Below are positions 20,442 through 43,549 of a stretch of 64,000 nt of DNA, in pieces. This stretch comes from Aphrophora alni (Eukaryota; Arthropoda; Insecta; Hemiptera; Aphrophoridae). How positions within the stretch are numbered: position 1 is the first letter of the stretch; every line of letters begins with the position of its first letter. Under the pieces are notes generated by a model that was given only the letters and a program-made list of their open reading frames with translations, was not told where the DNA came from and searched no databases. Location: positions 107,859,762 through 107,923,761 of the forward strand of contig OY740769.1 in NCBI GenBank assembly GCA_963513935.1, written 5' to 3'. The translations under genes were made by a program, and so were the position numbers.

Positions 20442-20638
20442 AAAACTCGAACACAAGATCTCACAAAAAATACGTTTACTTAATCAAACGGGTTTCAACT
20501 ACACGGTCGTCATCCTCTGTGATACATGAACTACAATAACTAAACTATAACTATGTATCACTGAGGATGATCACTTTGTCGTTGAAACGCGGTTAATTAA
20601 GTAAAAGTAATTTTTGTGAGATCTTGTGTTCCAGTTTT
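20442..20638 (+). mobile_element. Palindromic element A with hammerhead-like arms
   Basis: Two 86-bp arms (20442-20527 and 20553-20638) are inverted copies around a 25-bp centre. The right arm reads CTGAGGA (20561-20567), T, a stem-like stretch, then GAAAC (20584-20588). The left arm (minus) reads the same with CAGAGGA, and retains GTT then TGAT after GAAACCC. Taken together the arms give a hammerhead-like layout: ATCA/TGAT closing stem I, CUGAGGA core, an interrupted stem II (GACGAC with GUAGUU), and GAAAC. A 12-bp direct repeat, GATTTTAGTTCC, flanks it at 20423-20434 and 20685-20696. It is probably a non-autonomous, Penelope-related element. Confidence 0.65.
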
Positions 20639-20948
20639 ATTTTAACTAATATTTTCTCACAAGTCAAGCAGAATATTTATTTACGATTTTAGTTCCTGAA
20701 TTTTTATACTTAATTCCCCATTAGTAGTACTAAACATCACAATGTCTAAATTTTTAATGCTGCCTTATATTAGGAATCCCCCTTTCTCGGGGCTCTACAG
20801 ATATACCAATTAAAACCGTGGTTCAATGATGAATATAATATTATTTCTATGTAATTATTTAAACAATCACAATAAGAGAACTATATATATATTAATATCG
20901 TCACAATTTTTATCTTATCTCTCCTAATCTTATATTGTATACAATCAA

Positions 20949-21195
20949 CTACAATACATCGAAATACCAGGCTCTCTCTATGTTACTCGGCAAGAATGGG
21001 TATCTTCCGAAGACCCCTCGAGAAGCGATTCTTCCTGGGATCCAAAGACCCCGTCTCCTTTTGTCCAAGAGCTTATAAAGCTCCCTCTTGTTTGTAAAGT
21101 TGAACTGCCTTTGCAATGTAAGCATTTCATCACAATTATTGTTAAACTTGTATCTTTCGCAACAGTTGGTTTCAAGCTTTAATATTATTTTTATT
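20949..21195. other. Coding-like island, orientation unresolved
   Basis: A clearly more GC-rich segment stays open in three frames. On minus, a frame of about 80 codons without an early Met ends at the stop 20949-20951 and contains ELYKLLDKRRRGLWIPGRIA and FGRYPFLPSNIERAWYFDVL. A second minus frame is the Met-started ORF 20978-21175. On plus, an open frame from about 20924 to 21180 contains GSLYVTRQEWVSSEDPSRSD. The first minus frame looks most protein-like to me. No family is recognised. It may be one exon or a relic of a mobile-element gene. Confidence 0.35.
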
Positions 21196-21896
21196 TATCT
21201 GTTTTTCAAATAAAATTATACTAATTCTAACACTTATTTATATTCAAACTTTATGTTAAATGAATTTTGTAAAAAATAACAATGTTTAAATGTTCGTCAC
21301 ATACATTCTAATAATTAGTAATACCCACAGGGCAAATATAGTAATTATGTAATGATATGTAGCTCAATGTTAAGGAAAATAAAGGTCAGAATTACAATTT
21401 TTAAACCTCTACCTGTATAATTTCAAAATTAGGAGATATAACAACATTGGGTGAGATCTGCTAAAGTGGGCCTAGTTGGTCTTAATAATCGTAACGCAAC
21501 ACACTAGGGTTGAAGTATGTTAACAAGCAGAGCCATACATAACACCAAGGGAGTGGTCTGAGATCTAATAACAATCGGAATCAACTTGTTGCAAAGTAAC
21601 AACCTGTTGATTGACGAGGACTGCATAAGAACGGGAGAGATTTCTATTTGAAGTTTAATACTTAATGAACAACATAACTGTATAATAGTTCACCAACTCA
21701 CCATCAGACAACCCAGTTAGTCTTCGCACATGTACCTGAGGTAGCTCCGTCAGTTTAATCCAATGTAAAAGTAATATTGTACGTTCAAAGATTTCATTAA
21801 ATATTGTTTTTATCTAATGTATAACAGTTTGTGTATGTTTCAAAGCATCGATAAGTATACAAATAATAAAGCAAATAAGAATTTTGTTAAAACTTT
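21196..21896. other. Mixed-composition stretch, no gene assigned
   Basis: 21440-21760 is less AT-rich. A minus-strand frame is open for about 45 codons near 21650-21510, but it has no start, splice context or recognisable motif. Confidence 0.3.
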
Positions 21897-22152
21897 GAAG
21901 AGTCTCAAAAAATATTTCATCTCACATTTCATAATAGGTCATGGTTTTCCATTACAATACTAGTTTGCATTATAAATTCAAAAGTAAAACTTCTAAATAA
22001 TTCAAATGAAAGGGTAATTATACATGTAAAGAACGTTCAGTAAACTCACATTGGGTCGATTGCTAACGTTCATTTCTCATTGAAAATGGTAACTAGCGGC
22101 TTTTAAGGGTTTGAACGTTCAGGTTGATTTACATATGTTTGGTTACACAACT
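21897..22152 (+). repeat. Repeat U, left arm of a 3.4-kb inverted pair
   Basis: About 256 bp that is inverted and similar (roughly 80-85% by eye) to 25073-25324. Both arms end internally at the same place (GGTTACACAACT) and externally at GAAGAGTCT. They share GTTTACATATG-like, ACATTGGGTCGATTGCT and CTTTTAAGGGT blocks. Confidence 0.85.
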
Positions 22153-25072
22153 TAGAAACAGTATTTCCCAATAATAAAACAATTCTCGGTTTACAATTAC
22201 TTACATACAACGATCAGATCATTGCGATCAATCCAAAAATGTATATTTAAATTGATCGTGGCATCATTTAAGCTTCACGACCATGCATACATTTTTCAAT
22301 ATTATAAATTTTTTTAAAACATATTTCAAATAATCATCTTAAATTTATTACAATTTAATTCATCCCATTTGAACAAACAACATATTTAATACACTTTACT
22401 CTAGAATTAAAAATTAGAGTTGTTAATATTTCAGTGCAACGTTTCGATATCTCTAGTAATTAGGAAAACATTTAGTTAATTTCCTGAATGTTTCTCTTTC
22501 ATCCTGATAGGTGTATTTTTGTCACATTTATAATATAACGAACATATTATGATCCTATATTGATGAAACGTTACATTGGAAATGAATGGATTTGTGATCA
22601 ACTGCCACATGGGTTGTAGATCAAAATAAGAAGATAAAAAAAATATATCAAGAACGAATATTCGGAATAATTCAATATTTTAGAGTTTGGTGTGAATATA
22701 TGTTATTGTACTTAATTATTAAAATATGGCCAATTTCCCCTAAAGCGTAGAATTACGGAATTATTTTGTGAAAATATATAATTATAATACAACTTTCATG
22801 AAACTGACAATGCTTCGATTTTGATACAATTCATAAATCTCCTATGTTTATGAAGGGTACACTTCAAAAATCCGAAAAACCTAAAATTAAGAATAAAATT
22901 TATTGGCAGATTTTTATGAACTGCAATAAATTGTTTTTTTTTTTTTTCAGAAACTTAATTCGAATTTAAAACATTTTTGATACACGGAAATGGATATACA
23001 GTAGTGTGATTTCCACAGCATTTATTTATAATATTTTGTATATATGGAGAGTTTTACAGTTGTAAGATATTGAAAAAAAAAAAAAAAAATTACGCTAATA
23101 TTGATGAAATACGGAGACAATAAAATAAAGATATTGTATATTGAACCACTCATTGATTGAGGGTTGATATGATGTAAAATCTAAATTCGGCAACATGAGT
23201 CATCATATGATTAAACAATTCTATTGCAATGTAAAATGTCACCTCTTTTGTAATTGAATGCTGTTTTGTAAAACTTAAGCTTAAAGTTTTATTAAAGGTT
23301 CAAATTGTGTTATTACTTGATAATTTAAAAATTAAGAGTGAATCTCTTACGTGATTTTATATGGAAATGACTTTAATCGTTTACTGAGAAACCAGTAAAA
23401 TAAAAACCAATAGGAATATAACATTGGCCACATAGCGTATTAAAACATATACATTAATTACTTTTAGAGTGATATATTATTTCAACTGTTGTTTGTTAAC
23501 ACACATATTATCTTAGTACCCAATGTTGTACATAAAATGTTCATTTATATATTTTATATTATGACCAATTTATTTAAAATGCCATTAACTCTCAGGTTTA
23601 TTGACGGTGATGGTCACAGTTCAATAGACGTCCTTTTCGTTATTGTCAATCCAATTTTTTTATGAGATGTGAGATTTCTTCCTGTTAATATTGATTACGA
23701 AAATAAAAAAATCAATATATCTTCATAATCAGTCGAGAAGTTTAATTTATAAATAAAAACATGTAATATTTTGTATATAATAATTTTTGCTATTGTTTCG
23801 CTGTCGGCACGAACAAAATTAGCAGTTCATATGGCGGCACAGAAAACATAATACACATAACTCTCGAATAATTATTACAATACATTATTAGAGTAGTTCA
23901 CGAGGCGGTGCACTTCGCGTCCAATTCACGTATTGCTGTACTTTCACCATAACCATTTGTAACAAGGCGTTTGATTGTGCTCAAGGAATTTTTTCTTCCT
24001 AATCACTTCAGTGGCCAAACTGATGTACATGTCATGATGTAAACAACTATTATTTCTATATGACGAGGCAAAGTATGAATTTATTTTGAAATATTTTAAT
24101 ATCCAAACGGGTTTTATTTAGTAATCTGTTAATATATTAAAATTTTCTTTTTTACTGAAAGCTAGGTATTACGTCTAACAATTTTCTATATTTCATTACT
24201 TAATTTATTAAATAATTATTATTTATGAAACAATTATTTAAACTGTTTACTTGATTTAAAGAAATTTACTTGATGTTTGGGATTTGTAGGTTATTCTTAA
24301 AACTGTAATTATTACGTAAACATTTCCCCCTGTACAAGTCGGCTGACATACTTTTATGTGAAACGGAATACTCATTTGTGAACAGACAATCTACAATCAG
24401 TTAATCTCGGATTTGATTCAATGTTTTATTATTGTTCTACAGATAACAACTACTGTGCAAAGTCTTTGTGACGTGTTTTATAATGTTGGCTATCGCTTGC
24501 GTGGGTAATCTTAGAAGACAAAAATACAGTTTATCCTTAGGCTGGTGTAGATATAACAATATTCTCTCTAAACTAGATTTATTGAAGTCATAAAATCGAA
24601 TCATTTTTTATTGGTGAAGGAATTGGAATGGAAAAGTTTCAATATAAATCGTGGGTGAATTGTAATGTCTGAAACCTTAGCTCTGTCATTTTAATAAGCT
24701 GGAATCGATAAAGGTAGTGTTCACAAATAATATGAAAAAATAAGCTCCTTACTCCGAGGTTATACGTTGCCTATTTACATAAGAAATTATTATCAATCAT
24801 TTATCATGTGTATATATATATATACTTTCATACTTCTGGCAGAAACTATCTAATTGGTGTTTCAATCTTCACTAAATATACCTATCTAAACTCTATACTA
24901 TCTAATGCAGACGAAAATCAACAAAAAAGGCATATAAGTTTTTTCTCTTTACATTTGTTTTATTTTAATAATACTCGTCAAGATAAACACAATATCAATC
25001 GTAGAATACTTATCGCAGGTTCCTCCATGTTGTTCTTTAATTATGTTAGGGCTGTCATCTAAGATGTATCTC
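22153..25072. other. Spacer between U arms; no transposase seen
   Basis: 2.9 kb of AT-rich DNA with T/A runs (about 22936-22949 and 23073-23088). The ORF at 24808-25062 begins in a short TA repeat and has no recognisable domain. 24415-24480 resembles 35848-35910 (both contain ATGTTTTATTATTGT and a similar following pattern), a short shared repeat. Confidence 0.45.
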
Positions 25073-25324
25073 AGTTGTGTAACCAAACATATGTAAATCA
25101 ACCTGAACGTTGTTACCCTTAAAAGCCACTAATTACCATTTTCAATGAGAAAATTAACGTGAGCAATCGACCCAATGTGAGTTTATTGAACTGTCTTTAA
25201 AGTATTTACCCTTTCATTTGAATTATTTAGAAGTTTTACTTTTGATTTTTAATACAAAATAGTATTGTGATGGAAACCCTGTTTTATTATAAAATTTGAG
25301 AGGAAATATTTTTAAGACTCTTCC
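25073..25324 (-). repeat. Repeat U, right arm of the inverted pair
   Basis: Inverted counterpart of 21897-22152. The pair could be the terminal inverted repeats of one element of about 3.4 kb, or two independent insertions in opposite orientation. Confidence 0.85.
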
Positions 25325-25450
25325 AAGTCGTCTAACAATGTTTAGTAAAACTATTTTTTAATCCAACTTTAAATATTTTATTTAATATTCCTGTTAAACC
25401 AAGTTAAGTGGTTTTAACTTATTCAGTTAGCTTGGATTTATTTTTATCAA

Positions 25451-25620
25451 AGCAATTAAAAATAGGAAGGATGAGACTGATGTCAAAGGGTTTTATTTCT
25501 AAGGAGAGAGAATTTGAATAACAGAAAGTTAAATTAATTTGTATTAATGACGAGTTTAGTTAGTTTCTTGTTTCATAGATTTTCGTCTTGGATTTTAATT
25601 GTTGTTAAAATATTAACATT
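25451..25620 (+). repeat. Dispersed repeat S, copy S1
   Basis: Shares ACTGATGTCAAAGGGTT, then an AGGAGAGAG block and AACAGAAAGTTAAATTAATT with three other copies: 38260-38480 (minus), 40841-41010 and 62550-62700. The match extends about 170-230 bp. No coding frame is conserved. Confidence 0.75.
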
Positions 25621-26599
25621 TAAATGATTAAAAAATATATTTCGTTTGCACTTTTTACTGGTTTACTTTATTATTAGAAGAAATAAAAACACATTAAAAT
25701 ACATCATTATGTATTTTCTTTATCCATTTTAATATCAAAATGATAGCTTAATATGACCCCGCTCTCAATATTCGTAATATACAATAAATATTAAATGATT
25801 TCAATCTAATCCAAGAAAAATTAACACATACAAATCCTAATACATGTCGAAATTTTTATAAAGTAACTCCTATCCTTTCTATACCATAAACGACTAGACT
25901 TACTGTTACTAATCACACAAGGAAGCTAAAGTGTTGAAATACGATTTTAAAAATCAAATCAAATCATTAAGTCCATAACAAGTTTCTGAAATGCTTATTT
26001 TTATATTTACTCTTTTACAAAATAATTTCTTTTTTTATAAAACTCTTGATTTTTGTATCTTTAACGAAACCCTGAGTAAATATTTGGTACTATATATATT
26101 TTTTTTTCAACTTACTTTAGATTTAAACCCAACATTCTTAAATTACACTTTTGACTTCTTAAGTAATACTACGAATGTTTGAACGACACTTATTTATACT
26201 AAATCCTTATATGTGTATTGTGGAGCGTTTTGTCTTTTGTTAATGATTTTAAAGTTAAGCGAGCAAGCATGAAATGTTTAAACGAAAATGGGATTGTGGT
26301 TTAGAAACGCGTTTTGAAACAACTTTTAAAAATGACGGACTATACAGAAATTGTTAATTTTTTTTTTATTCTGCTTTACTTCATAACCTTCCATATTTCT
26401 GTACAGAATACTTGGGTTGTCATAAATCAAATAATTTCACATATTTACGTAATCTCTAAACAACAATCAAAATGCAATGTTTCACTGATGCCTCTTGTCA
26501 TCCTCAGTTGTACACAAACTAAAATGACCAAACAATACACCATTCAATATAATTTTCCTTTATCACTGAATTCATAAATTTCCTATTCCATTAAAAAAT
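25621..26599. other. AT-rich stretch with one ribozyme-like relic
   Basis: ORFs at 25991-26182 and 26314-26577 are hydrophobic or low-complexity translations of AT-rich DNA. The second overlaps a possible hammerhead-like relic on minus at 26479-26507. Confidence 0.4.
26479..26507 (-). other. Weak hammerhead-like relic
   Basis: Minus strand: CTGAGGA, T, 16 nt, GAAAC. This is the same spacing theme and core as element A, but stem II is weak. Possibly a degraded copy. Confidence 0.25.
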
Positions 26600-27371
26600 T
26601 ATAACTTTTAAACTACATTACGTATAACTAAGCAAATTAAAACCAATTTTTCTTAAAAAATACGTAATAACTTATGAGAAATTTTGAATTATTAGAAATA
26701 TAAAATTGGCTAATTTTCGGATTAACTAAAAAAATAGAACATAACTTATATTTCCATAAATCGTTCAATTAAATATAAATAAATATATACCAAGTGTCCT
26801 AAAAGTCCCACCCCCTATTTATTTATTTTTTATTAATGGAAATAGAGAGATTTGCTTTGGGGGAAAGTTTAGATAACAAAAGAAGGAGTTTTTGAAGTAT
26901 CAACCTTTTCAACCCTTAAATGGGGTTGTTTGGGGGTAAGTTAAGAATTTTAAATAGCAACCCCTATTGAGTGATATCTCATTTTAAAGGACTTTTAAAT
27001 AAGACTAATGACTCTAAGTTCATCCTATGCAGCATAGCGTATATATGACACTTGGTATATATTTATTTATATTAGTTGAACGATTTATGAAAATATAAGT
27101 TATGTTCTATTTTTTTAGTTAATCCGAAAATTAGCCAATTTTATATTTCTAATAATTCAAAATTTCTCATAAGTTATTACGTATTTTTTAAGAAAAATTG
27201 GTTTTAATTTGCTTAGTTATACGTAATGAAGTTTAAAAGTTATGGTAAGGGTTGAAAAGGTTGATACTTCAAAAACTCCTTCTTTTGTTATCTAAACTTT
27301 CCCCAAACCAAATCTGTCTATTTACATTCATTAAAAAAAAAATAGGGGGTGGGACTTTTAGGACACTTGGT
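26600..27371 (+). mobile_element. Nested foldback (mariner-like MITE) cluster
   Basis: Arm pair 1 is 26600-26798 and 27047-27244, about 199 bp inverted with only about four differences. Arm pair 2 is 26790-26920 and 27245-27371, about 130 bp inverted, beginning CCAAGTGTCCTAAAAGTCCC. The order on plus is A, B, middle, A-inverted, B-inverted, so pair 2 brackets 26790-27371 as a 582-bp element with long terminal inverted repeats flanked by TATA. TA flanks and ends of this style are typical of Tc1/mariner-derived MITEs. The low divergence of the arms suggests recent formation or gene conversion. No transposase is present; the ORF 27269-27451 is incidental. Confidence 0.8.
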
Positions 27372-27389
27372 ATATATATATATATATAT
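27371..27389 (+). repeat. (TA)n microsatellite
   Basis: Short TA tract directly abutting the right end of the foldback element; it may have grown from the TA target site. Confidence 0.9.
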
Positions 27390-30300
27390 GAGTATATACA
27401 AAATATTTTGTGATCTTTAAAGGTACACAGTATTAAAAGATCCAATCCCATTTTGTTGACCGTATTGGAAAGTTTGGGAAGTTATAATTGGTAGCGGACT
27501 CTAGTTGAGAATACTAGCCAAACGGTGATTGGAATTCGATGTACAAAAATATTATTCGCTGAAAAAAGTCTAGCAGACTATGTCCTTCAAGACTGTTTAG
27601 CGGCGGAGATTTTAGTTTATTTTTTTATGTTATTTAAAGTTTAGTAAGTATTTTTATAGAAAAAAATTAAAATTAAACTACTAGGTTAAATTGATCATAA
27701 GTTTAAATTGAAAACCGAGATTTAAAACTATGATTATAATGAAAAATTTGAGATATTATCACTTTCTTTTACATACGTAAATATTTAAGTAGATTTAATA
27801 CTACATAAACAATGTTGTGTTTAATACAAATTTTTGGGGTTATAAAGGAGAACATGTGTTATGCACCCATAAAAAGGTATCGGTCTAGGCAATCTGTTTT
27901 TAAATCTACCCAAAGAAATACCGAAACAGGCGATACCTAGGTTGACTTAGCTTATGGAAAGTACAACAATAATATTTCATTTGCTGTGTGGAGTTTTACC
28001 ATATACGTTGATGGGGGTTAGTAAACATAATTAAATATAAATGTAATTAAAAAAATATCATGACTTAAGGTGCTAGGTAATTGGTAATTGTAAATGTCAA
28101 ATTATTGAACATGTAAACTAAAATATATATTTAGGTATTTTTAAATTGTTGATTAATCTAGATAAAACACATTGATTATTAAACAAAATTAATAAAATAT
28201 ATTAAGGGGTGTTTCATATATTAAAATATGAATGTAGCTTAGAAGTTTTGAAATCAATTTATTACGGTTTAATCAATTCTAAATTGGTTATGGGGTAGAG
28301 TGTACTACACTACTTTAAGTGGAGTGTACCCGTCATTAAAGTACATTTTATAAAACTTATGTTAAATAAAAAATAGTACATACTACAACAGTTTTATACA
28401 TATTTTAAACTTTTTACCGCTTTAATGTTTATATATTTTTTTAAATTAAGATATTTTTAAGATGAGTAGAGAGAGTAAGCATAATTTTATAACTTACGAA
28501 ATAATATAAATGTGATTGTACCCAAACCAAAATTAATTTCGTTTAAAAAAATATATTCCTATTTCGCTTCAAAGTTGTTTAAGCCATATGATAACAAAAG
28601 TTGCACAATAAAAACAAAGTTTGTAGGTTAGTAAAACATATTTTAGCTGATCAAGATGATGTTAAACTTTATTTTAGTACGATATAATAATAAATATTTA
28701 ATTTTGTATTGTTAATTTGTAGAAATTATGTATAGTTTGTGTGGTTCGTGTAAAATATTGCACTTATAATAGGAGCGTAAATTTATAGATAATGATCAGG
28801 CTTCTTTTTAATGTTGTTAATTTTTGAGTTTTTTATTTTATTATTTAAAGTTTTTAGTTTTTGTAAGTGTTGTGACCAGTCAGTGCTTTTTTACTTTTAA
28901 TGTATCGATATCAAAACTCTAAAATTATAGGATTACACATGCTTCACATGAAAAATTACCCAATTTAACAAATTAAATATCACCAACCAAAACATAGCAC
29001 ATTTTATCAAAACCCTCAGTAGATATAAATATAATTCATGTTTTGTATTTCCATATAATATAATTTGTATACTGTAATATGAACATATAGTAGAATTTAT
29101 ATTATATGTCAAGAGTTTAAAAAAGGGAAGAAAAGAGAGGAAGAAGAACTATAACTTGGGAGAAAAAATAAGTTTCTTTGGTGAAGAAGTAAAAAACGTT
29201 TAGGACATTCATTCACGACATCCAAAGAAGCAGCATCATTGTTATGGACACAGGAATATTAAGTGTTTTAAGTAATTATTTCAGTGATAAAAAAAGGGAA
29301 ACAAACCAAGTAGTTAAAACATAATATTGAAACTTAGAGCCATTGGAGACTGGAATATATAACTTTGTTTATCCCTCCATGGAATTTTTCATCATTATAA
29401 ATTCACCTATCAACCGGTTTATATCCAGTCAGAATTAACCGATAAAAATTACAACTCTCTCTAAATTCATGAAAGGTCTTAATAACTAACTCAAAACTGT
29501 GAAAAAAAAGAACTTTTATTAACTTAAGGAATATAAATGCCATTTTTGTAAAAACTACAATCATTTAAAACCATTAATTTCGTGTGATATTCATCTATCA
29601 CATCACAAACATTTCATTCTTTTTTAAGATATCCTAATTGTTTGTTTTCAGTTTTTATAGTTTTAATTTATGTTGTACACCTAAAAGTGTTGTAAAAATA
29701 GTAATCGCAAGAGTTAGAGCCTTTTGAACCTCTGAAACCCGAGATTACGAGGAAGCTATTCATTTGTATATTTTGTAAATGAATAATTCTAAAATAATAA
29801 CGTTAAATAAAATTGTTAAAACATATTATACGTTGTACAACTTATATTATAATAAGTAAAGTAACCGTATTTTACGTAAAACATGAATGTAGTGTATTGT
29901 GTTCCATTGTATTTATTATATTAGCCATTGTAGTGATTTAAATTATTAGTAAGTAGATACTCGGTGGGCTGAGGAATATTTTTCTCTTATGCAAATAATT
30001 GTTTTTTCATAGTATGTACAAATTTATTATTTTTATTTTTAATCACAATACACCTTTAAACCTCGGGATGTATTATTATTGTTCCACGTTAGATAACTCA
30101 ATACATTTGAAATTAAATGTTTCTAACCAAGTTATGTTTGAATTTGATAATATTTACATCAAATATGTAACCATCATGTAATTCAAAGGAACAATAAATT
30201 CAGATTCAAGCTAAAAAAATCTGCATCTAATAACAAAATTTTAGAAACATTTATATTATAATTATATTATTGAAATTACTGAATCTGCTTAATCTTTTCA

Positions 30301-30493: not shown

Positions 30494-30546
30494 AATAAAC
30501 TGTTTAACTTTAATATAATAGCAGATATTTCTTGTTGAAACTCCAT

Positions 30547-30668
30547 ATTCAAGGATAAAATAAAGCAAAAGCGTTGCCCGATGATGCCGCAAGGCGAAAC
30601 AATTGTAGCTCATTTATATTATTAAAATATTTGAAACTTTAAGCTTTTGCTTTATTTTATCCTTGAAT
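30547..30668 (+). mobile_element. Palindromic element B with hammerhead-like core
   Basis: Terminal inverted repeats of 26 bp (30547-30572 and 30643-30668) are perfect. Between them the plus strand reads CCGATGA (30578-30584), T, GCC-GCAA-GGC hairpin with a GNRA loop (30586-30595), GAAAC (30596-30600), AATT, then GTAGCT. This matches element C in plan and in the trailing GTAGCT. One core base departs from the consensus (CC in place of CU). A 13-bp direct repeat, AATAAACTGTTTA, occurs at 30494-30506 and 30666-30678, so the insertion may include about 40 nt to the left of the palindrome. Confidence 0.65.
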
Positions 30669-30826
30669 AAACTGTTTAGTTCATTTTATCAGTGTATGAT
30701 GTTGATATTATTTCAGAGACTGTTTGCTTTGTAATTCCACACTAAATGCCATTCATGGTTCTTGATATTGCTTTTTTCTCTAACAATACAAATAAAACAA
30801 GATATTTAAAAATATATATAATAGAA

Positions 30827-30844
30827 ATATATATATATATATAA
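30827..30844 (+). repeat. (AT)n microsatellite
   Basis: Short AT tract at the left edge of palindrome D. Confidence 0.85.
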
Positions 30845-31098
30845 ACATCCAAAGTTTTCTTTATAATTATTAGTTTTGAAATTGTTAATGTACAAGATAT
30901 TTTTAAGTCAAATATTTTTAATTTGTGATTAAATAGGAAGAAACAATAAAAAGAATTCTATCTGGTTCGTGTGTGTATATGCATATTTTTAAAGTTTCTT
31001 CCTGTTTAATAACAAATTAAAAATATTTGACTTAAAACATATCTTGTACATTAATAATTTGAAAAATTATAATTATAAAACTCTAGATGTTTTCAATT
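30842..31098 (+). mobile_element. Palindromic element D (MITE-like)
   Basis: Arms of about 100 bp (30842-30944 and 30999-31098) are inverted copies, sharing AATGTACAAGATAT, AAGTCAAATATTTTTAATTT and AGGAAGAAAC. The centre is about 54 bp. No ribozyme-like core was seen. The external ends carry ACATC...GTT-type sequence, but no clear target duplication. Confidence 0.75.
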
Positions 31099-31389
31099 AT
31101 CCATATAACTCATTTTTTACTTCATTCTTATTCAATATCAGTATCATCTTATATTTTTTAAATACCTCTGAATATTCCTATTGACTTTTAAAGTTAAATC
31201 GTTCTATAATTTTATTAAAAAAGGAACTTGGTATGTGGTATTCCACTTTTGATATGGTTCACGTTTATATAAATGTAAAATGAATTTCAATTAATCATAA
31301 CCAGAAAAGTGCCTTAGATTAAAAACTAATAAAAAGTTACAAAAAAGTGGTGAATTTTAAATATCAAAAATTGTCTGATTAAAAAAGTG

Positions 31390-31710
31390 AATTCAATATA
31401 TTTTGTATTTAGCTTACTTAGTCTAAATAAAATAAACCTTACTGGAATGCTATTTAGCTACGTCTGCAAAGAGACATCATCAGGCTTCGCACGTGTCACA
31501 ATTAATTATAAAATTACATACAATAAATACACGAACATTTAAAAACAATACATGTTATATATAGGGCAGCCTGATGATGCCTCTTTACAGACGAAACTGA
31601 CGTAGCTAAATTACATTCCATTAAGAATGATTTTAGACATATGAAAAACAAGTAAAATATTTTTGACATTTTTGATTTTAATAAAGTAAACACAAAATAT
31701 ATTGGTTATA
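31390..31710 (+). mobile_element. Palindromic element C with hammerhead-like arms
   Basis: Inner arms 31438-31486 and 31568-31625 are inverted copies; weaker inverted similarity extends to about 31390 and 31710. The right arm reads AGC, CTGATGA (31571-31577), T, a stem region, GAAAC (31593-31597), TGAC, GTA, GCT. AGC/GCT can close stem I, and AC/GU around a four-base loop can form stem III, as in a hammerhead. The left arm (minus) keeps a perfect GTCT/AGAC stem II but has lost nine bases containing GAAAC between two GTC copies. Confidence 0.7.
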
Positions 31711-33068: not shown

Positions 33069-34661
33069 AATACTTTTATATCAGATTAGGCTTATTAAAA
33101 GTAGCAGTGCTAAAGTGGATGACGCTAAACATGTTATATTCATTGCCGTTTTGTAATATAATTCACGCTATATTTAAACCGTTGTTATCGCAAAACCTCC
33201 ATTATTAGTGATTCGATTTGTGATTTTAAATAAATCCAACTTTGATACTTTATGTATATTTAGTTCAATTCTACTAAACCTTACTTAGATATATCGGCGA
33301 TGATTACCCACTATGTCTAATGACAGCTGAAATGTGTAATGTGTCATAAAGTTTTTGTCGACGCCATTATCGCCTGTGATATAATAATAAAGTATACAAT
33401 CAATTGCAAGTATTAACAGAACAATCGGCACGAGATTAAATACTTGAAGGTTGTTTAGAAACTAAAGTTATTTATTTAACATGAATCATTACACCACTTC
33501 AAAGGATTAGTAAATAAACTCACCTCAGGGGATTTCTCTTTCTTTTCTGATCATAGTTATTTATTTTTAAAATAACCCATACGTATCAAATTTCTTGTAA
33601 CTTTCGCAACATAATTTATGAAAAAAAAAAAAAAAAAAAAAAAAAAACCCAAACTTAAATCAGTATTTCTTTAATTGGTTAATTTTATAAAACTATTATT
33701 TAGGTTCTGAATTCATATTTTTTATTTTCATTTTCAAATAAAAATGTATACCTAAAATTATACAATAAAGTCGAAAATATATACGTAATCCCTGAATGTC
33801 TGAGTGAACAAAAATTATAGTAAATGAGTTTTTGTTTGTTATAAAAAAAGAAGATTTATTTTATATTTCAATTACCCTTATTACTTTATTGTATACCAAT
33901 CTTTTATATTTAAACTTACTCTCTATTTTTTATAAAACCAACAGATAAAAGTTTATATTTACAAACTTTATTAATTAATCATACACAATATTGAATTAAC
34001 AAATTATTTGAGATCTCTTTCTCCTTTCTCCTCAGGATTTCTATCGGTTAAGTTTTTTACAATATATATATTATGTATGTATGTATGTTAGTCCTTTTAG
34101 AAATTTTAAAATTATATTATAATAATTAAAAAAACATTGTATTTCTTCAAAAGTATAATCCATATTTTTAGTCTTATTTATTTTTACTTCCTTAATGAAT
34201 ATTTAAACTAGGGTACTTAACATTTCAGTTCACGTCCATCCTCAACACGTACAATAACCAGCAAATATTCTGTCTTCTAACAATTATCAATTCTTTATGG
34301 ATAAATTATATTATTTCTAGTTTCATCGCAAAAATGTAAAATTAATTCTTTTCTGAGAGCCCAAACAAAAACGTAGTACTAAGTATCAGAGCAAAAATAA
34401 GAATGCTTTTTTTTATTGTTATAACATTCTGCATTCCAAATTGTATTTCGTCTTCCTCCTCTCAGAAATATGTTACAATGTCTACCTAGTTATAAACTAT
34501 ATATATATTTTCCACCGCCTATAGAAAAAGCAATGGAACTAATGTGATTCTAAAGCATTATAGTTTTCACGAATTTCTTCATAAAATAATTTTTAATTAA
34601 ATCCTTTTTTATATATAAAAGAAAGGTGAGTTTGCTAGAAAACAAAACAAAGTTTGCAATT
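33066..34661. other. AT-rich stretch with A27 run
   Basis: Contains a 27-base A-run at 33621-33647 and (TATG)4 near 34071-34087. The A-run is not preceded by a recognisable retroelement. No gene found. Confidence 0.5.
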
Positions 34662-35346
34662 GGTGTGTTCGGTAGATTTGTATGTTTGGTAGATTGGCGT
34701 ATTCCGTAGATTGATGAGTTTGGTAGATTGGTGTGTTAGGTTTATTGGTGTGTTCGGCAGACTGGTGTGTTCGGTAGACTTGTGTTTTCGTAGACTGGTG
34801 TGTTCGGTAGATTGTTGTGATCGGCAGATTGGTGTGTTTGGTAGATTGGCGTGTTCGGTAGAATGGTGTGTTCGTTAGACTCGTGTTTTCATAGACTGGT
34901 GTGTTCGGTGATCGGTATATTGGTGTGTTCGGTAGACTGGTGTGTTCGGTAGACTTGTGTTTTCGTAGACTGGTGTATTCGGTAGATTGTTGTGATCGGC
35001 AGATTGGTGTTTTGGTAGATTGGTGTGTTCGGTATATTGGTGTGTTCGGTAGACTGGTGTGTTCGGTAGACTCGTGTTTTCGTAGACTGGTTTGTTCGGT
35101 ATTCGGCAGATTGGTGTGTTTGGTAGATTGGTGTGTTCGGTAGATTGGTGTGTTCGTTAGATTGGTGTGTTCGGTAGACTGGTGTGTTCGGTAGACCGGT
35201 GTGATCGTATACTGGAGTGTTCGGTAGATTGGTGTGTTCGGTAGACTGGTGTGTTCGGTAGACTGGTGTATTCGGTAGGCTGGTGTGTTCGTATACTGGT
35301 GTGTTCGGTAGATTACTGTGTTCGGTAGATTGGTGTGTTCGGTCGA
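34662..35346 (+). repeat. 17-bp minisatellite with higher-order structure
   Basis: About 40 copies of a 17-bp unit close to TGTGTTCGGTAGATTGG. Because 17 is not a multiple of three, an uninterrupted array reads as a 17-residue repeat (VYRTHQSTEHTNLPNTP on minus), which explains the 168-codon ORF at 34889-35395 and a plus-strand ORF. Variant units are ordered: ACTTGTGTTTTCG occurs at 34778 and 34953, and the related ACTCGTGTTTTC at 34879 and 35070. This implies a higher-order period of about 175-191 bp. Strand composition is strongly skewed (G+T on plus). Confidence 0.95.
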
Positions 35347-35441
35347 TGGGCATAAGAAAAATTGAGTGCCGTTTATTTAACAAATTTGTGTTCACAATTT
35401 AGTGTTGCTGTTTCTTTATTTTAAAGTAAAACTATTTGTTT

Positions 35442-35497: not shown

Positions 35498-35498
<1 letters not shown>

Positions 35499-35819: not shown

Positions 35820-36035
35820 ATGTCGTTTGAAGTGTTCCTACTCGGGATTGATAGAATGTTTTATTATTGTACTTTGGACGACAACGACTGGGAGTATCTT
35901 TGTGGCGTATTCAATAATTTAGCAGCCATTAGGCAGACTGGGCAATCATCACCGATATATCCGAGAACATTCGTGGACTTGGCTGGATTTGAACTGAATG
36001 TATCTTTGTTTTATTTTAAACAAACTTATGTTTAA
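35820..36035 (+). other. ORF of 71 codons, doubtful
   Basis: A Met-started ORF in a slightly GC-richer patch (MSFEVFLLGIDRMFYYCTLD at its start). Part of it, 35848-35910, resembles 24415-24480, where the frame is not kept. It is therefore more likely a repeat relic than a gene. No family recognised. Confidence 0.2.
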
Positions 36036-36419
36036 CATCACACCGTTATTTTGTTTGTTTCTATGAATACTTAGTAACTGTAAATTTAATTGGAATGTTA
36101 TATGTAATTAGCTAAGTAATTCCTACACCACTCGCGTATTTTTTTTACTATAGTCCCGATTTTAATAATTGTGCATTTTAAACAGTGTTACTTCTAGATT
36201 TGCCAACAATTGTTCATTTTCCTTGGAATCACTAATTTTTAAATAAATTTATCATTTAAATATCATACCTGTTATGGATAAGTAATATGTGTATATTTTG
36301 AAACAGGTATTTTAAATTTTGAAATATGTTTAATTTCGTTTTGTAAGAGAATTTATAAACATCTGTGCTTTACATTATCTATAGGTTAACTTATATACTT
36401 TATAAGTACGGATTCACGA

Positions 36420-36775
36420 AGTGTTGTGATTGGTTGTTTAAATTTCGCAAATATAAAAAGTTTATGATACTTATTGTTAATGTGAGACAATTGGGTCTGA
36501 ATGTATCTCGCAAAAGTTATAGAATTAACTCTACATACTGTATAGCGCTCAATATATTTGTGATTTATTGCTTAAATTGCAATAGTTAACGATTTATGCG
36601 GTTTATTGTTAATTTGTGACGATTGGGCCTGATTTGTTTTATTTCGCAAAAGTAAACGAGTTAACTGTTACACGCCCTGTATAGCGCTTACTTTATTTGT
36701 GATTTATTTCTTACACCTCGCAAAAGTTAACAGTTTAATATAGCTTATTATTAATGTGTGACAACTGCGGGGGAG
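36420..36775 (+). repeat. Degenerate tandem array, 132-141 bp unit
   Basis: The pattern TTTATG...TTATTGTTAAT..GTGA(C)..TTGGG..TGA..T..TCGCAAAAGT..A(C)G..TTAACT...TATAGCGCT..TTTGTGATTTATT recurs. Units start near 36461, 36593 and 36734, with a partial unit before the first. That is roughly 2.5 diverged copies. The ORF 36365-36589 runs across it and is incidental. Confidence 0.75.
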
Positions 36776-36819
36776 CTTAAATATTTAGATATTCTATGTT
36801 TTAGTCAGTATAAAATAAA

Positions 36820-36882
36820 ATGCCGGCTTCAGGATGTCCACGGAAAAAAAGTGAACATTGGTCGATGAACAAACGCCAATAA
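36820..36882 (+). other. Possible 20-codon small ORF
   Basis: ATG at 36820 opens MPASGCPRKKSEHWSMNKRQ and then a stop, in a locally GC-richer patch after the tandem array. The purine context (AAAATG) would allow initiation, but there is no conservation evidence. It is listed only because its composition differs from the surroundings. Confidence 0.12.
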
Positions 36883-38259
36883 CAGAAATCGAAGGTTATG
36901 GAATCGTGAAACTTACAAATTCAACATTATGATGTCAACATGAGCTTCAGAACTCGACATTATATTAAAATTGCATTTAATAATAACAATCCATATTTCG
37001 ACGAAGTTGATATTACTGAAGAATGTAGATATTGTAGTGGTTAGAACGAAACAAAAATCTATTATTCTTAACTTTTAAAATTTCTGAACTGGAAATGAAT
37101 AGTCTTATATAATTATTTAAACATTACAAGCAAAATTTTATATTTAGAAATTACGACGTATTCTTATAAAAGATAGCTTATAGAAGAATTTCTATGTAAC
37201 TGGTAGTTTATTTGTGATTTAAATTATCTGGCTAATCAGGTGAATGTTTATAAACTTCATGTTTTTAACAAAGCTATTTTATTGAGTAGACTGTCTCAAT
37301 TTTCAATATTTTGAGATATCTTAAAAACTAGAAAGTTTGGTGTTTTAAACTAAATTATTAGAATTTAAAGAAAGATCGGTTTCTCATTTGTTTAAATGTA
37401 ACGTAAACAACAACACACAGTTATCAGTAAACATAGTTATTATAGTATTTAAATTGTTATTATATTATTGATTCTTAAATTTTAAATTAATCTGTTCTAA
37501 CTATGTGTTTATTAAATTTAATGTTTTTGAGTTTGTGATCATCTGAATATATTATCCTAGGTCTTTAAAGCATCGTGTTTTAAAATACATCTGATTAAAG
37601 ATTAAATAATTTAGGATATTTTTAATTATAGATTAATTAAATATGTAAGATTTGTTTAATTATTGAAAATAATAAGTACCTTATAAATAATTCTTTTCCA
37701 AAAAAGTTTAAAATATCCTGCGTCGTTGAAACACGTATAGAATATACAAGTCTAAGTTTTATTTTCAGAATATCTTAATATAGGTACGGCTATATTTTCA
37801 GTAGAAATAAATATAAAAGTGAATGTTAGTGACGCATATTCAAGGTCTCAATAACCATGAAAATATTGGATTTTATATAAAAATTGCAATAAATAGAATT
37901 TTGTTTACGTATTCCCCTTAAAGAAAAAAAATATAAAGAAAATTCTGTCTTAATACATTTTCCCCCAATCTTTTTAAAGAGAATTTTTGTTTGCTTAGTT
38001 TTTGAAACTAAAGTTACAAACCTGGAAACTTTTTATACTTATGGTATCCCTGGTAGACATTAGTGAAAACAACATATGATAATCGGTCTAGCATTGTGAT
38101 GAAAAGAAGATAGAAGTTTATTTATTTCCTAACTTTTATGATGACATGCATATATTAATACACTGAATAATAATAATATAATTATAATAAGGTTGAACAT
38201 TGTGAATAATGAAGAATCTTATTATTTTTTTATTCGATGTAATGTAATAACCTAGTTCA
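36883..38259. other. AT-rich stretch, no gene seen
   Basis: No supported feature. Confidence 0.4.
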
Positions 38260-38480
38260 TAAGATAAAGAAAATATTGATTTTAGTCATGGAAATGTTAA
38301 TAATTTTATAACAACAATAATAATAATCCCACAAACGAATCCATGACAACAGAAACCGAACTAAAATTGTCAATAATGCAAATTAATTTAACTTTCTGTT
38401 ATTTAAATGTATAAAAACTCTTTTCTTAGAACCCTTTGACATCAGTTTCAGCCGTCGTAGTTTTAATTAACTTGATGCAA
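38260..38480 (-). repeat. Dispersed repeat S, copy S2
   Basis: Minus-strand copy of the S family. It contains GACGGCTGAAACTGATGTCA followed by AAGGGTT, and AACAGAAAGTTAAATTAATT. It extends through TTCTGTTGTCATGGATTCG to an AATTATTAACATTT end shared with S4. Confidence 0.75.
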
Positions 38481-40840
38481 ACTAAATCCGAACACTTTAT
38501 TCCAAGCTGAGTGAATGCATTTCATAAAAATATAAGAGAATTTTTTATTAATAATCAGTATTGTAAATCGCTTATATTATAATATAATAATTGAAACTAA
38601 TAATAGTAATTACTAGGATTTATTATTACGGTAAATTATTCAGATTTTTAATTTAGAGAAGTGTGTTATGTAAATTTATTGTATAGCATTTATAATAAAG
38701 AATAGCAGCTAATGAAGTCAAGTATACCTTTTGTTTACTATTAACATTACTTTAAAAGAAAAAAAAACAACTACATATGAATATGTTAAATATTAGTAGT
38801 TAAATTGAGCTGATATAAGTGATAATGTTTCCTTAAAATTTGAAATAACTATCCTTAATGCGTTTTTAACTTGAAGTAAAAACAAAGGAGGATAATTCTG
38901 CTAATGTTGTCATTATAGCACAGGAAACCCAACACCCACGGCTTAATAATACGTTTACTGCCTGATTATAGTGGTGTTAGGCCTAAGTCAAGAGTAAGAT
39001 GACAAAATATGTTTTTAGAAAAGTGGGCTTGTTGGAAACTTGAATTAGTATGTTCATACAATGTATATGAATTTGTGAGCTGCGACAATCACTTCAAAGA
39101 AACACTCAGGACACAAATTATACATCACAAAAGGCTCCAAAACATCCGCAAAATATCTAACGTAACATATCTTCCTCTTTTCTAACATTATGTGAGAAAT
39201 GAAGAGTCCCAAATATTTGTCTCTCGAAGGTTTAATGAAAATCATAGTTCTCTATATGTCGTTAGTTTATATATTCTTATTTTTAATTTCACAAAATATT
39301 ACACTGAATACATTAAGATAGAGATGAAATTTGATCGACTTATTTCTGAAATCAAAATATGTATGCTTTTTTTAACCTTTTAATTTTCCCCTTCTTATCA
39401 GAAAATGGTTTTAATCTATTTCTCTCTTTTTAATAATTTTCTCTCTTTCTAATAAACTATGATCTTCTAGATATAATATTTAAAATTGACGATTATTGTA
39501 TAATACATTAAACTTGAAAACGGACCACGTATATTCTATGTGCAATATTTATCTGGTATTTTTTTGTGAAATATATTACTATTGTAATGGAAGTTATTAT
39601 GAAAATATTCATAACAAATAATTGAGTGTTTATTATGATTCAGTGAACAATAAACAATCCGTTAAAGCTGTTCAGCATACTGACACACCACAAAAGGAAG
39701 GAATGTATTTCCCTTTCAGATTAAATACAAAATATTTTGTGAGTATTCACTTAAAACCATAAAATTTTAGTTAAACCACAACAAAGATTATAGAATATTC
39801 TTTTGAAAGAAGATAGATAAGTATGTATATGAAAAAGCAATATATTTCGCAAAAGATCTTTCCTCACAAAACCTCCTTTCCAAATCATTCGTTGATGTAA
39901 ATTAAAAATCAAATCAAACCCAACACAAGTCCTAGGCATTACATTTTACCTCAACTTTTCTCATGTAAAAACTACCGATCCGCACGCATTGCTTTATAGA
40001 AGAAATGTATCTGACATTAGATCTCCACAATATATTTGAAAGAATTTGACAATCAAAGCATTCAAATGTTTTTGGTATGTCAATGCATAATGACTAATTT
40101 TTTTATATTTTGATTTAATATATCACGCATCACTTCAAGAAATGTCACAGATATACTTTCAATACTCATGACAATAAATAAAACCAAATTGATTTTTTGT
40201 CTTTAAAAAAATTGTAAATATAAAAACAGCGATAGTCTTTTCTTTTCCATTACCTCAAATATTTTCGAAAAAAAATAATATTATTTTTAATTTTTAAGAG
40301 TATATTTGAATTAAAAATGGATAACCCAGGATATTTAGGCGTAATACCTAAACATATTGTCCAGAGTATTGAAATATTACACGTATTTATATTTAGATAA
40401 CATCCGATTTTCAAAAGCATTCTATCAAATATTTTAAAAATTATAAAATTTTCAACGTTTAAAAAAAAAATTAAAATACCCTCTAAAACTTCAAAAATAT
40501 TTATTTCAATTTATTTATTCATAACTGAGTAAGAGAAAGTAAAAAAAATCCTTCAATTTCAATTTGACCAAAATTATACAATTAGCCCCGAAAGCAAACT
40601 TAAATTTGTGAATACCAAACTGTATAATAATTGCACATCATTTTTGGTAAAATGGTTTTAAGTATGATTCCACAAACAAAAACATTAAACAGGTGAAAAC
40701 AGGCTAATACAAAAGAGACTGAAAGTAGCTATAAAGTAGCTTTATAAGAAATAGATTTAATTGGCAAGACATTTCCCTCTAAAATAAATGTGAATAAATT
40801 ATTAAAATTATAACGTCCAAATAATTACTATTATTTGCTT
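38481..40840. other. AT-rich stretch, no gene seen
   Basis: ORFs at 39054-39245, 39192-39383 and 39751-39939 have no recognisable motif and overlap on opposite strands. No repeat partner found. Confidence 0.4.
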
Positions 40841-41010
40841 CAATAATAGGACGGCTGAAACTAATGTGAAATTTTATTTTCTAATGAGAGAGTTTTGTAT
40901 ACAATTCAATAATAGAACGTTTTGCATTTTATTGACAATTTTTATTCGATTATTGTTGTCATAGATTTGTTTCTATGATTATTAATTAATTATTGTTATT
41001 ATTATTAACA
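40841..41010 (+). repeat. Dispersed repeat S, copy S4
   Basis: AGGACGGCTGAAACTAATGT and the downstream TTATTGACAATTTTTATTCG, ATTGTTGTCATAGATTTGTT and ATTAACATTT blocks match S2 and S3. Confidence 0.7.
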
Positions 41011-42049
41011 TTTCTACTATGAAAAACTACATTTTACTTACCTTGTGTACTGGATTATTGTATTAGAATTATAAATAGAAATAATTTTTTAAATCATAAA
41101 GCAAAATTTTAATATTTTATTATCTGGATTTTCCATGTTATTGCATACAATTAAAATTTTGTGATAAATCTTGATATTTTATATTTTCAGTGATATATCA
41201 GATCAAACGAACACACACATATTACAGGCTGTCTTGGCAAATTAAATGTCTACTAGTATCCTCTCTACACCCCGAATTGTTGGACCTAGTTTCACTTGTT
41301 TTCATAATTCTCTATCAGGGGTAGTATGAGTTAGGTTAAGCAGTTCCTCTGTACCAACTTTCCGCTAAAAATAAATACATAAATAAAACACACTTTTTAA
41401 AAATATTTTAATATAAACGTACACTTTTCCATATTTATTAAGACCCTGAATAAATATTTGACATTAATTTCAAAGAATAAATAGATATCCTCTTGTGTTC
41501 AGAAACTAACTTTACACTTTTTAATTTTAGATAAAAAAGGTAATTCAAGACGCATATAACTTATTTATAAATAAACTTCTGCCTCATTGAAAATATTATA
41601 CACTCACTTGTTTGTAAACTGCATGCAATTAATTATTTTGTTTCATACACCACGTTGTATGGTTGTCTACTCTAAATTGGAACAATAACGATTCTGTGTT
41701 TATTTATTTGCAATAGTGTAGCCTACTATAGATTTGGATTAATTTAAAACATCAAACTCCTACTTTTTCTAGACAAGATGAAATGAATATGAGATAATGA
41801 GTCGAGATCTGGCTGTATTAGAGAAATATGAAATTTTCAAACCTGATCAGCTAAATAAAAGGCTGATTTCAGTTAAGGAAATAAACTATCCTTCAGTTCG
41901 AAATTATTGTTAACAAAAATATTTATATAAGAATATATAACGATATATATAACTTTTCATTATATAACATATTTATAATAACATTATATAACATATTTAT
42001 ATAACAATTTCTAAAATTATACGATAATATACCTAATGTTTAAATCAAT
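41011..42049. other. AT-rich stretch, no gene seen
   Basis: No supported feature. Confidence 0.4.
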
Positions 42050-42620
42050 GGTAAATATTGTATGTAACTTTAAAATTATCTATTATTCATTGAAACCAAC
42101 AACGTTTCACTAATGTGTATTAACTAATTGTTTAATATATTATTTTCGATTAAAGGCGTAAAACTTCTCGGTTATTATCACATCATTAAAAAAGGTAAAA
42201 CAAAATGAAGACCCCCTTTTTCTCTAATACTCTGATAACATCAGAATCGAAAGAGAATAAAATAAACCAAATAGTGAAGATAAAAGGGAAGGGTCTACCT
42301 CAATACTACATGAAAAAGTTTGTAAATCTTACTATAAAAGTTACTATATTGAGCTTCTAAGTGTGCTAATTGTTTTATGTAATCTTTATTGGGTTGCGTA
42401 TGCAAAAAATGTTATTTTTTTTCATACTTAAGGTTAAGATATAGGTTTTAGGCTACTATATTCTTGTTCACTAGGTTCCAAATGACAAAATAACACCAAA
42501 AAAATTGTTTTTGAAAATTTCATGATTTTTCACTATTTTCAGTGGTGAAATATGAATTTTTTTCATGAAAACAGAAATTTTAAAATGATTGTGGGGATTC
42601 TATACATAATCATGTTCAAA
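42050..42620 (+). repeat. Dispersed repeat R, copy R2
   Basis: Collinear with the minus-strand copy R1 (45150 down to 44690). Shared blocks are GAAACCAACAA, TTAACTAATTGTTTAAT, CTTCTCGGTTAT.ATCACATCAT, GAAGACCCCC, TACTACATGAAAAA, GTGTGCTAATTGTTTTATGT and TTCTATACAT near the end. A frame across about 42222-42360 stays open and includes IVKIKGKGLPQYYMKKFVN, similar to the R3 frame. Confidence 0.8.
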
Positions 42621-43499
42621 AAGTATATATATTACATTGTATATATTTCATAACTAACACACAATGTAACAAATTTTAATAATAATGTAAGTTTGAAGAT
42701 TCTACACGTTAATAAGTATAAAGAGTTTGATTCGTTGAAAATTAAATTATCAGTTTCAAAATACTCTACTTTAGTATCAAATAAAGAGATGCCTGAAAAC
42801 CCCCTCCCCATCTTACCCCGTCTGACCAACTATCTGCTTAGTAACTTGTTGCTATTCTTTCTCATTTATGCTGCTTAGCTGTATGCTATAATATAGGTGC
42901 TCTGCATAATAAACAAACAGATTTCTTCATTTACTATTTGGTTCTACCATATAACTACGGTGATAAGTTATAATTAAATGTATTATTTAGATTCTTCAGT
43001 TTATTTTTATATAATCACGAAAGTTAGATTATAATAAATGTTTTAGATAAAGTATGTTTACTGAATATTCCTAATGCAAGCTTGATGTTTGTACTAGATA
43101 TCAAAAATCAAATTGCATTCGTAATTGAAAGTAAATACGACTTCAATATTGACTAAATTTGCATATCATGTTGCAATGTTTGTTCATCATTTTCTTTCTC
43201 ACTCAGTTAAATATTTTGCCGATAAAGGACAATTAATACTTGACAATTTTGTTGCTTATAGAAACATTAATTTTTTATGAAATTAAATGATAAACCAGAA
43301 TTTATTTAAATTTCTCGAAATGGCGTATTATCAATATATTATGAGTTGCTTTGAAAAATTACCCACTAAAGTAATTTGTGCCTTTATATTAATTATTTTT
43401 ATTTTATATTATTGGGAATAAAACCAATGTATTCAAAAAAGTTGTTGACGTCTTTATAATATAATTAAAATTATATTATACGTCAAGTGACCTCTTTTT
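42621..43499. other. AT-rich stretch, no gene seen
   Basis: ORFs 42632-42829 and 42693-42878 overlap antisense and are unlikely to be genes. At 43458-43483 there is a short perfect AT palindrome at the presumed 3' end of the Penelope-like element. Confidence 0.4.
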
Positions 43500-43549
43500 T
43501 GTGTTGGTGACGCGTTTCGGGACTTTTATCCCATCTTCAGATACAACAT
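43500..43549 (-). ncRNA. Hammerhead-like motif in Penelope-like 3' region
   Basis: Minus strand, 5' to 3': TGTTG (43548-43544), CTGAAGA (43540-43534), T, GGGA-loop-TCCC stem II (43532-43519), GAAAC (43518-43514), GC, GTC, then CAACA (43506-43502), which pairs with TGTTG to make stem I. This has the core bases of a hammerhead (C-U-G-A-N-G-A, G-A-A-A) and a GUC cleavage triplet. One extra U lies between the core and stem II. Hammerheads are known from Penelope-like elements, which supports the call. Activity is not shown by the sequence alone. Confidence 0.55.

What the first reader, a model, noticed from the sequence alone, without database searches (positions are those of the whole stretch)
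20442..43549. One hammerhead-like fold recurs in a Penelope-like element and three palindromic elements
Seen: four loci share CUGANGA, one extra U, a stem II of 3-6 pairs, then GAAAC. They are 43549-43500 (minus), 20553-20638 with its inverted arm, 30578-30610 and 31568-31607. Stem II sequences differ but pair: GGGA/UCCC, GCC/GGC with GCAA loop, GUCU/AGAC, and interrupted GACGAC/GUAGUU. After GAAAC come 2-4 bases then GUC, GUU or GUA, and the next bases pair with those before CUGA: UGUUG/CAACA after a small internal loop, AUCA/UGAU, AGC/GCU. Known: hammerheads occur in Penelope-like elements. Inference: the palindromes are ribozyme-bearing non-autonomous relatives. The extra U between the core and stem II is shared by all and differs from the textbook core, and could mark a distinct variant or reduce activity.
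Basis: partly seen in the sequence, partly recalled or inferred. Interest (0 to 1): 0.85.

Follow-up and report, generated by a model that had tools for sequence, protein, structure and literature searches.

The report
Penelope retrotransposon ribozymes in mirrored fragments
The four folds are relics of a small self-cutting RNA carried at the ends of Penelope-type jumping genes, whose signature occurs tens of thousands of times in this genome, and the mirror-image pieces look like two such ends inserted head to head.

Summary
The motif is real; the ribozyme reading is borne out genome-wide more than by these four copies. Genome-wide (1.70 Gb) CTGANGATG..GAAAC has 40,952 matches against 399 for the reversed pattern. 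Listed copies covary in stem II (37 of 60 distinct inserts fully paired, shuffle maximum 19); stem I pairs beyond shuffles and stem III is self-complementary in 20 of 31 combinations, as in hammerheads that act as dimers. They lie in pseudo-LTRs of intact Penelope-like elements (17 of 20 junctions). One motif occurs beside a PLE ORF and in head-to-head palindromes elsewhere; 17 of 20 close pairs face outward. Window copy 43540(-) follows a decayed PLE endonuclease. The extra base sits between A9 and stem II but may be U, G, A or C, and its AUG is not the ORF start here. Minimal PLE hammerheads and inverted pLTRs are known; whether this insertion is in print I could not check. Activity is untested.

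The parts
43500..43549 (-). hammerhead-like motif of a PLE pLTR: core CTGAAGA, one inserted U, stem II GGGAU/GUCCC, GAAAC, self-complementary stem III word ACGCGU, cleavage triplet GUC, stem I UGUUG/CAACA
43705..44127 (-). decayed endonuclease part of a Penelope-like ORF, upstream of the motif on the same strand
   Evidence: tblastn of 240 PLE proteins, best E 2.6e-21; read with its stops
44082..44600 (+). decayed Penelope-like reverse transcriptase part, inverted relative to the endonuclease part; the two pieces share a 58-nt 86% overlap
   Evidence: tblastn best E 2.5e-36; overlap; Pfam alone did not name it
20439..20527 (-). left arm of palindrome P1 with a motif (CAGAGGA core) at 20519-20492
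20553..20641 (+). right arm of palindrome P1 with a motif (CTGAGGA core) at 20561-20588; 77 of 89 positions match the left arm; motifs face outward
30546..30572 (-). left arm of palindrome P2 (no motif)
30578..30610 (+). P2 motif, CCGATGA core, stem II GCC/GGC, self-complementary ACAAUUGU, GUA; the same motif incl. CCGATGA at L034:6813(-)
30643..30669 (+). right arm of palindrome P2, downstream of the motif
31428..31486 (-). left arm of palindrome P3; motif remnant 31483-31454 with stem II GUCU/AGAC but without GAAAC
31568..31635 (+). right arm of palindrome P3; motif 31571-31607 with GAAAC and GUA but a mismatched stem II

Best explanation
The recurring fold is the minimal type I hammerhead of Penelope-like elements (PLEs). 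It lies near the 3' end of the pseudo-LTR, in the four intact families seen with C3 106-153 nt before the ORF's ATG. Its stem III is only the self-complementary word A15.1..U16.1 (ACGCGU, ACAGCUGU, ACAUGU, AUUGCAAU, ...), too short to fold alone but able to pair with a second copy, so two motifs from tandem pLTRs should form a double hammerhead that cuts the multi-copy transcript into units. New copies are made by target-primed reverse transcription that starts a little downstream of the motif, so truncated insertions keep mainly the motif and its tail. Two such ends joined head to head give the palindromes; reverse transcription from both target strands or self-priming are the candidate routes. 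The window holds one decayed, 5'-inverted PLE copy with its 3' pLTR motif (43.5-44.6 kb) and three decayed palindromes. Shown: motif, covariation, PLE location, head-to-head bias, motifs shared between PLEs and palindromes. Inferred: dimer cleavage in this species, the insertion route, and that P1-P3 belong to PLE families like those traced.
For: 40,952 matches against 399 for the reversed pattern. Stem II all-4-paired 37 of 60 distinct inserts, shuffle mean 8.7, maximum 19, with C-G, U-A, A-U and G-C all present at pair 3. Stem I 58 of 80 cells paired, shuffle mean 38.4, maximum 54. Stem III word palindromic in 20 of 31 distinct combinations. Open PLE frames, mostly 829-846 aa, in tandem and head to head; motif in 17 of 20 pLTR/ORF junctions, four families. 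Motif CTGATGATGGTATATGTTATACCGAAACAGCTGT 190 nt after a frame-broken PLE ORF in L045, alone in L046, and in palindromes L052 and L055. 10 of 28 motifs had an inverted partner of 54-163 nt, in all ten upstream; 17 of 20 neighbour pairs within 500 nt are minus-then-plus. L052 and L055 share 33 nt (94%) just outside the left arm, and L034 a shorter word of it (partly by eye), like the optional tail of one inverted pLTR. Published: PAc PLE hammerhead, cutting and extension of both strands, internal RT start (PMC11167929, section 3); head-to-head inverted pLTRs with an optional tail on one (PMC3846280, passages); PLE hammerheads and dimer cleavage (PMC7761336 passages; PMC6466107 passages).
Against: No clear target-site duplication at the 11 palindromes examined (best exact repeats 5-6 nt). 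P1, P2 and P3 share no stretch of 60 nt or more with the window's PLE pLTR, and their own families were not traced to a PLE ORF. The palindrome-arm covariance model did not recover 43540 significantly. Pfam did not name the window's RT piece (only DUF5485, E 0.14). 3 of 20 junctions lacked the four family motifs. 11 of 31 combinations have a non-palindromic stem III word. No cleavage data; the PAc hammerhead did not cut without its protein and was not needed for insertion in vitro (PMC11167929).
Confidence: 0.87

Rival explanations
1. The palindromes are an independent class of foldback DNA elements (MITEs) that captured a hammerhead; the PLE link holds only for 43540.
For: A fourth palindrome in the window (30782-31158) carries no hammerhead, so foldback elements of other kinds exist here; no clear target-site duplication at 11 palindromes; P1-P3 do not resemble the window's PLE pLTR.
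Against: Elsewhere in the genome one motif is shared by a PLE and palindromes; a second is next to a PLE ORF on the opposite strand (L038) and in a palindrome (L051). Motifs face outward in 17 of 20 close pairs, as in PLE inverted pLTRs.
Confidence: 0.1
2. The extra U exists because A9-U-G is the start codon of the PLE ORF, as in the lizard element PAc.
For: [quoted passage not shown] in the window the distance from A9 to the cut is also 26 nt (counted by hand).
Against: In the four families with a motif at the junction the AUG opens only 3-12 codons and the ORF starts 106-153 nt after C3; abundant motifs carry G, A or C in place of U.
Confidence: 0.04
3. The motif is a conserved protein- or DNA-binding palindrome of the pLTR and not a ribozyme.
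For: No activity has been measured here; Rfam found no hammerhead in the window.
Against: The constant letters are those of the hammerhead core, the variable stems covary, and the core pair C3-G8 also occurs as U3-A8 in an intact PLE family and in a pattern with 17,019 matches against 2,385 for its reverse, a change recorded in natural hammerheads (PMC3088659, section 8).
Confidence: 0.05

Closest known systems
Minimal type I hammerheads of Penelope-like elements (Cervera and de la Pena 2014; Lunse et al. 2017: only titles and citing passages seen, papers not held)
   Same: Small type I hammerhead with almost no stem III, in PLE pLTRs, with thousands of dispersed genomic copies, thought to cut as dimers (PMC7761336; PMC6466107)
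   Different: Here the well-paired strings of both listings have exactly one inserted base between A9 and stem II; I could not read whether the published consensus has it
PAc, Poseidon-type PLE of Anolis carolinensis (PMC11167929)
   Same: Hammerhead at the pLTR/ORF junction; reverse transcription starts inside the RNA downstream of it
   Different: In PAc the ORF starts at the motif's stem II; here the ORF starts 106-153 nt after C3
Inverted, head-to-head pLTRs of Penelope elements in Adineta vaga (PMC3846280)
   Same: Outward-facing pLTR pairs with an optional tail on one side
   Different: The pairs measured here have no ORF between them and no clear target-site duplication
Non-LTR retrozymes of animals (PMC7229834)
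   Same: Type I hammerheads with weak stem III, dimer cleavage in some, many genomic copies (passages)
   Different: Retrozymes are short tandem repeats without ORF; here solo or palindromic copies and ORF-bearing PLEs

Membership tests
Hammerhead ribozyme | CUGANGA ... GAAA core with U16.1 and H17 | tested here: met
   Window 43540; 40,952 genome matches to the U form. Window copies 30578 and 20519 deviate at U4
Hammerhead ribozyme | Stem II between A9 and G12, supported by covariation | tested here: met
   displaced from A9 by one inserted base,
Hammerhead ribozyme | Stem I pairing across the cut | tested here: met
   in the 20 combinations with a palindromic stem III word; broken in P1's right arm
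Hammerhead ribozyme | Match to an Rfam hammerhead model | tested here: not met
   Window only; minimal dimer forms lack most of stem III, so the models may not fit them (inference). The genome-wide RF00163 search did not complete
Hammerhead ribozyme | Self-cleavage after position 17 | not testable with these tools
   Needs in vitro transcription
Dimer (double) hammerhead | Palindromic stem III segment and tandem motif copies | tested here: met
   20 of 31 combinations; tandem PLEs with the motif in the spacer
Penelope-like element | Telomerase-like RT plus GIY-YIG endonuclease in one ORF | tested here: met
   Genome ORFs match PLE protein P0227 over residues 2-813 of 829; P0233, which carries Pfam RT and GIY-YIG domains, matches the L045 copy and, in two inverted pieces, the window. 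No domain scan was run on the genome's ORFs themselves
Penelope-like element | Pseudo-LTRs in tandem or inverted arrangement | tested here: met
   Tandem spacers of about 310-360 nt and head-to-head copies; for P1-P3 themselves only the layout is met
Penelope-like element | Target-site duplication | tested here: inconclusive
   None clear at 11 palindromes; not always present in PLEs (PMC3846280, passage)

The most novel reading that the evidence does not exclude
A PLE-specific hammerhead architecture in which a single unpaired base between A9 and stem II is obligatory but free in identity, and in which this linker and the intermolecular stem III evolved together as a ribozyme that works only as a dimer; with C3-G8 and U3-A8 core types both occurring more than 10,000 times by pattern count in one genome, it would be a natural mutational scan of a dimeric ribozyme.
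Probability: 0.35. Interest if true: 0.72.

Novelty: new member of a known kind. Interest (0 to 1): 0.52.

Why it matters
[quoted passage not shown] This genome offers open-frame tandem PLEs of several families and tens of thousands of pattern matches, so stem use, core swaps and the linker base can be compared within one species. It also gives a simple reading of dispersed hammerhead palindromes: truncated PLE ends joined head to head. If the linker base is general in PLE hammerheads, search models should include it.

Tried and rejected
Rfam at gathering and E<=10 found no hammerhead in the window. A pattern scan of viral contigs gave 9 hits in three sequence groups, in phage-type DNA, taken as chance; one of bacterial genomes gave 2 hits, not examined further. 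PLE protein scans of viral contigs gave no usable PLE (none; 11 loci at 23-31% identity, not followed). A covariance model from four palindrome arms found those arms and P3's left arm, but 43540 only at E 8.7. Reading the inserted U as the ORF start codon was rejected. A protein search with the window's RT piece found nothing, and Pfam gave only DUF5485 at E 0.14 for it. No clear target-site duplications. The single-change controls for the C3-G8 pair (CTGANAATG and TTGANGATG) did not complete, so I do not claim covariation of that pair from counts.

Rows dropped before counts: from the 100 places listed, 16 of 17 copies of one tandem array, and all 17 for the orientation count (83 kept); from the 100 listed, only 64 with a recognisable stem II were kept, by eye, for the orientation count. 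In one search the matches of a motif to itself are trivial and were ignored; short downstream inverted matches of 22-32 nt were seen at three motifs and not counted as partners; my notes say 29 hits there, the printout has 28. The listings cover only the first 4-8 Mb of contig C1.
Full report
Observation. In 200 dinucleotide shuffles of the window the strict form averages 0.025 (2 observed) and the relaxed form 0.045 (4 observed: 43540, 30578 and both arms at 20.5 kb), and no shuffle reaches either; 31571 fails the stem II test. Details need correcting. Locus 30578 has CCGAUGA. Only 43540(-) has core, stem II, GAAAC, GUC and stem I on one strand. Rfam does not recognise any of them. The window lies in a 1.70-Gb genome, contig C4.

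Genome-wide test. The pattern CTGANGATG-N4-20-GAAAC occurs 20,278 + 20,674 times, its reversed control 191 + 208 times. The tool lists only the first 100 places. Of the 66 distinct strings copied from them (a 17-fold tandem array counted once), 60 are long enough to test: 37 pair at the first four positions of stem II, against a shuffle mean of 8.7 and maximum of 19 in 2000 shuffles; pair 3 occurs as C-G, U-A, A-U and G-C. Pair 1 is partly fixed by the G in the pattern. The register is sharp: stem II starts after exactly one inserted base; the registers with none or two give 0 fully paired of 62 and of 55.

The inserted base. CTGANGAV-N5-21-GAAAC gives 22,420 matches against 6,611 control. Of 58 distinct strings copied from the 100 listed, 17 have stem II of at least 4 pairs, and all 17 again have one inserted base: A 7, G 7, C 3. 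In 267,809 fetched bases, perfect cores with stem II of at least 5 pairs split into 26 with inserted U, 3 with G, and 1 without insertion, the last with GAAAU and no GUH close by and probably chance (most of these regions were chosen by the U pattern). So the insertion is fixed in place and number, not in identity. A published statement allows one or two inserted bases between CUGAnGA and the adjacent stems in known hammerhead alignments (PMC10085705, passage).

Not a start codon here. [quoted passage not shown] I tested this on 20 pLTR/ORF junctions of PLEs with open frames. Seventeen carry one of four family motifs; reading from the motif's AUG meets a stop after 3-12 codons, and the ORF's ATG comes 106-153 nt after C3. 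Three junctions lack these motifs.

Stem III and stem I. Of 31 distinct combinations with stem II of at least 4 pairs and a 6- or 8-nt A..U segment, 20 have a perfectly self-complementary segment: ACGCGU 8, ACAGCUGU 6, ACAUGU 3, ACCGGU, AUUGCAAU and ACCGCGGU one each; 11 do not. In these 20, stem I pairs 1-4 are formed in 58 of 80 cells (shuffle mean 38.4, maximum 54, 0 of 5000 reach it). A palindromic stem III with tandem motifs is what the literature gives for double hammerheads, PLEs included (PMC6466107, passages; PMC7761336, passages).

Core pair. One open-frame family (L062, L064, L074, L075) has UUGACAA, that is C3 to U and G8 to A. TTGANAATG..GAAAC has 17,019 matches against 2,385 control, with paired stems such as GGCU..AGCC visible in the list. 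U3-A8 is recorded in natural hammerheads (PMC3088659, section 8). The single-change controls did not complete.

Penelope link. tblastn of 240 PLE proteins places an endonuclease piece at 43705-44127(-) (E 2.6e-21) and an RT piece at 44082-44600(+) (E 2.5e-36) in the window; a Pfam scan of the RT piece alone gave only DUF5485 at E 0.14. The endonuclease piece is upstream of 43540(-) on the same strand, followed by about 150 nt without that frame and the motif: a 3' pLTR end. The RT piece is inverted, with a 58-nt 86% overlap at the joint, like a 5' inversion. Elsewhere open frames, mostly of 829-846 aa, stand in tandem with spacers of about 310-360 nt and head to head (55 scored of 22,181 candidates).

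Palindromes. In 194 kb fetched from C1, 10 of 28 motifs have an inverted partner of 54-163 nt within 1 kb, in all ten upstream; only short inverted matches of 22-32 nt were seen downstream. Among 147 listed motifs kept, 20 neighbour pairs lie within 500 nt: 17 minus-plus, 2 plus-minus, 1 plus-plus. The motif CTGATGATGGTATATGTTATACCGAAACAGCTGT follows a frame-broken PLE ORF by 190 nt in L045, is alone in L046 and forms palindromes in L052 and L055; another motif is beside a PLE ORF of the opposite strand in L038 and in a palindrome in L051. Arms end 64-104 nt after C3 in the 11 palindromes measured, with no clear target-site duplication. L052 and L055 share 33 nt (94%) just beyond the left arm; L034 has a 12-nt word of it there, seen by eye. 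Similar features are described for Penelope inverted pLTRs (PMC3846280, passages). The P2 motif, including its CCGATGA core, recurs in L034. I did not trace P1, P2 or P3 themselves to a PLE ORF.

Mechanism and limits. The best reading is dimer hammerheads of tandem pLTRs, truncated insertions that keep motif and tail, and head-to-head joining of two such ends. A palindrome transcript would hold the motif and its complement and should rather form a long hairpin, so these copies are probably poor ribozymes (inference). No cleavage was measured; PAc's hammerhead cut only with its protein and was not needed for insertion in vitro (PMC11167929, section 3).

Novelty. The papers found by searches and opened in part describe PLE hammerheads, dimers and inverted pLTRs. 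The two primary papers are not held, so I cannot say whether the one-base insertion is in print.

Noticed in passing
window 30782-31158: A fourth palindrome (arms 30782-30952 and 30986-31158) in which no hammerhead motif was found.
   Followed up: no
window 11859-12179 (-): Another decayed PLE piece (E 7e-9); no CTGANGA core in 11.2-12.3 kb on that strand. A weak PLE match also at 46861-47013 (-).
   Followed up: partly
window 42112-42615 and 44683-45116: An inverted repeat flanks the decayed PLE on both sides; nature unknown.
   Followed up: no
L061, L062, L063 and window about 43490-43470 (-): Downstream of the motif several PLE families share a GTCAC/ATCAC..GACG word followed by GGTAAT.. 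and a possible short intron before the ORF (sequences, by eye); a similar word is in the window. Might be an RT start or a splice site.
   Followed up: no
G000:C1:4056068-4057343: A tandem array (mostly 75-nt steps) matches the motif pattern 17 times but its insert does not pair as stem II; not counted as a ribozyme.
   Followed up: no
window 34609-35398 (-): Long repetitive open frames of tandem repeat units (STEHTNLPNTPIYRT-like).
   Followed up: no
window 31460-31594: Weak MIR172 match on both strands (E about 0.01, below the family's cut-off), probably due to the palindrome.
   Followed up: partly
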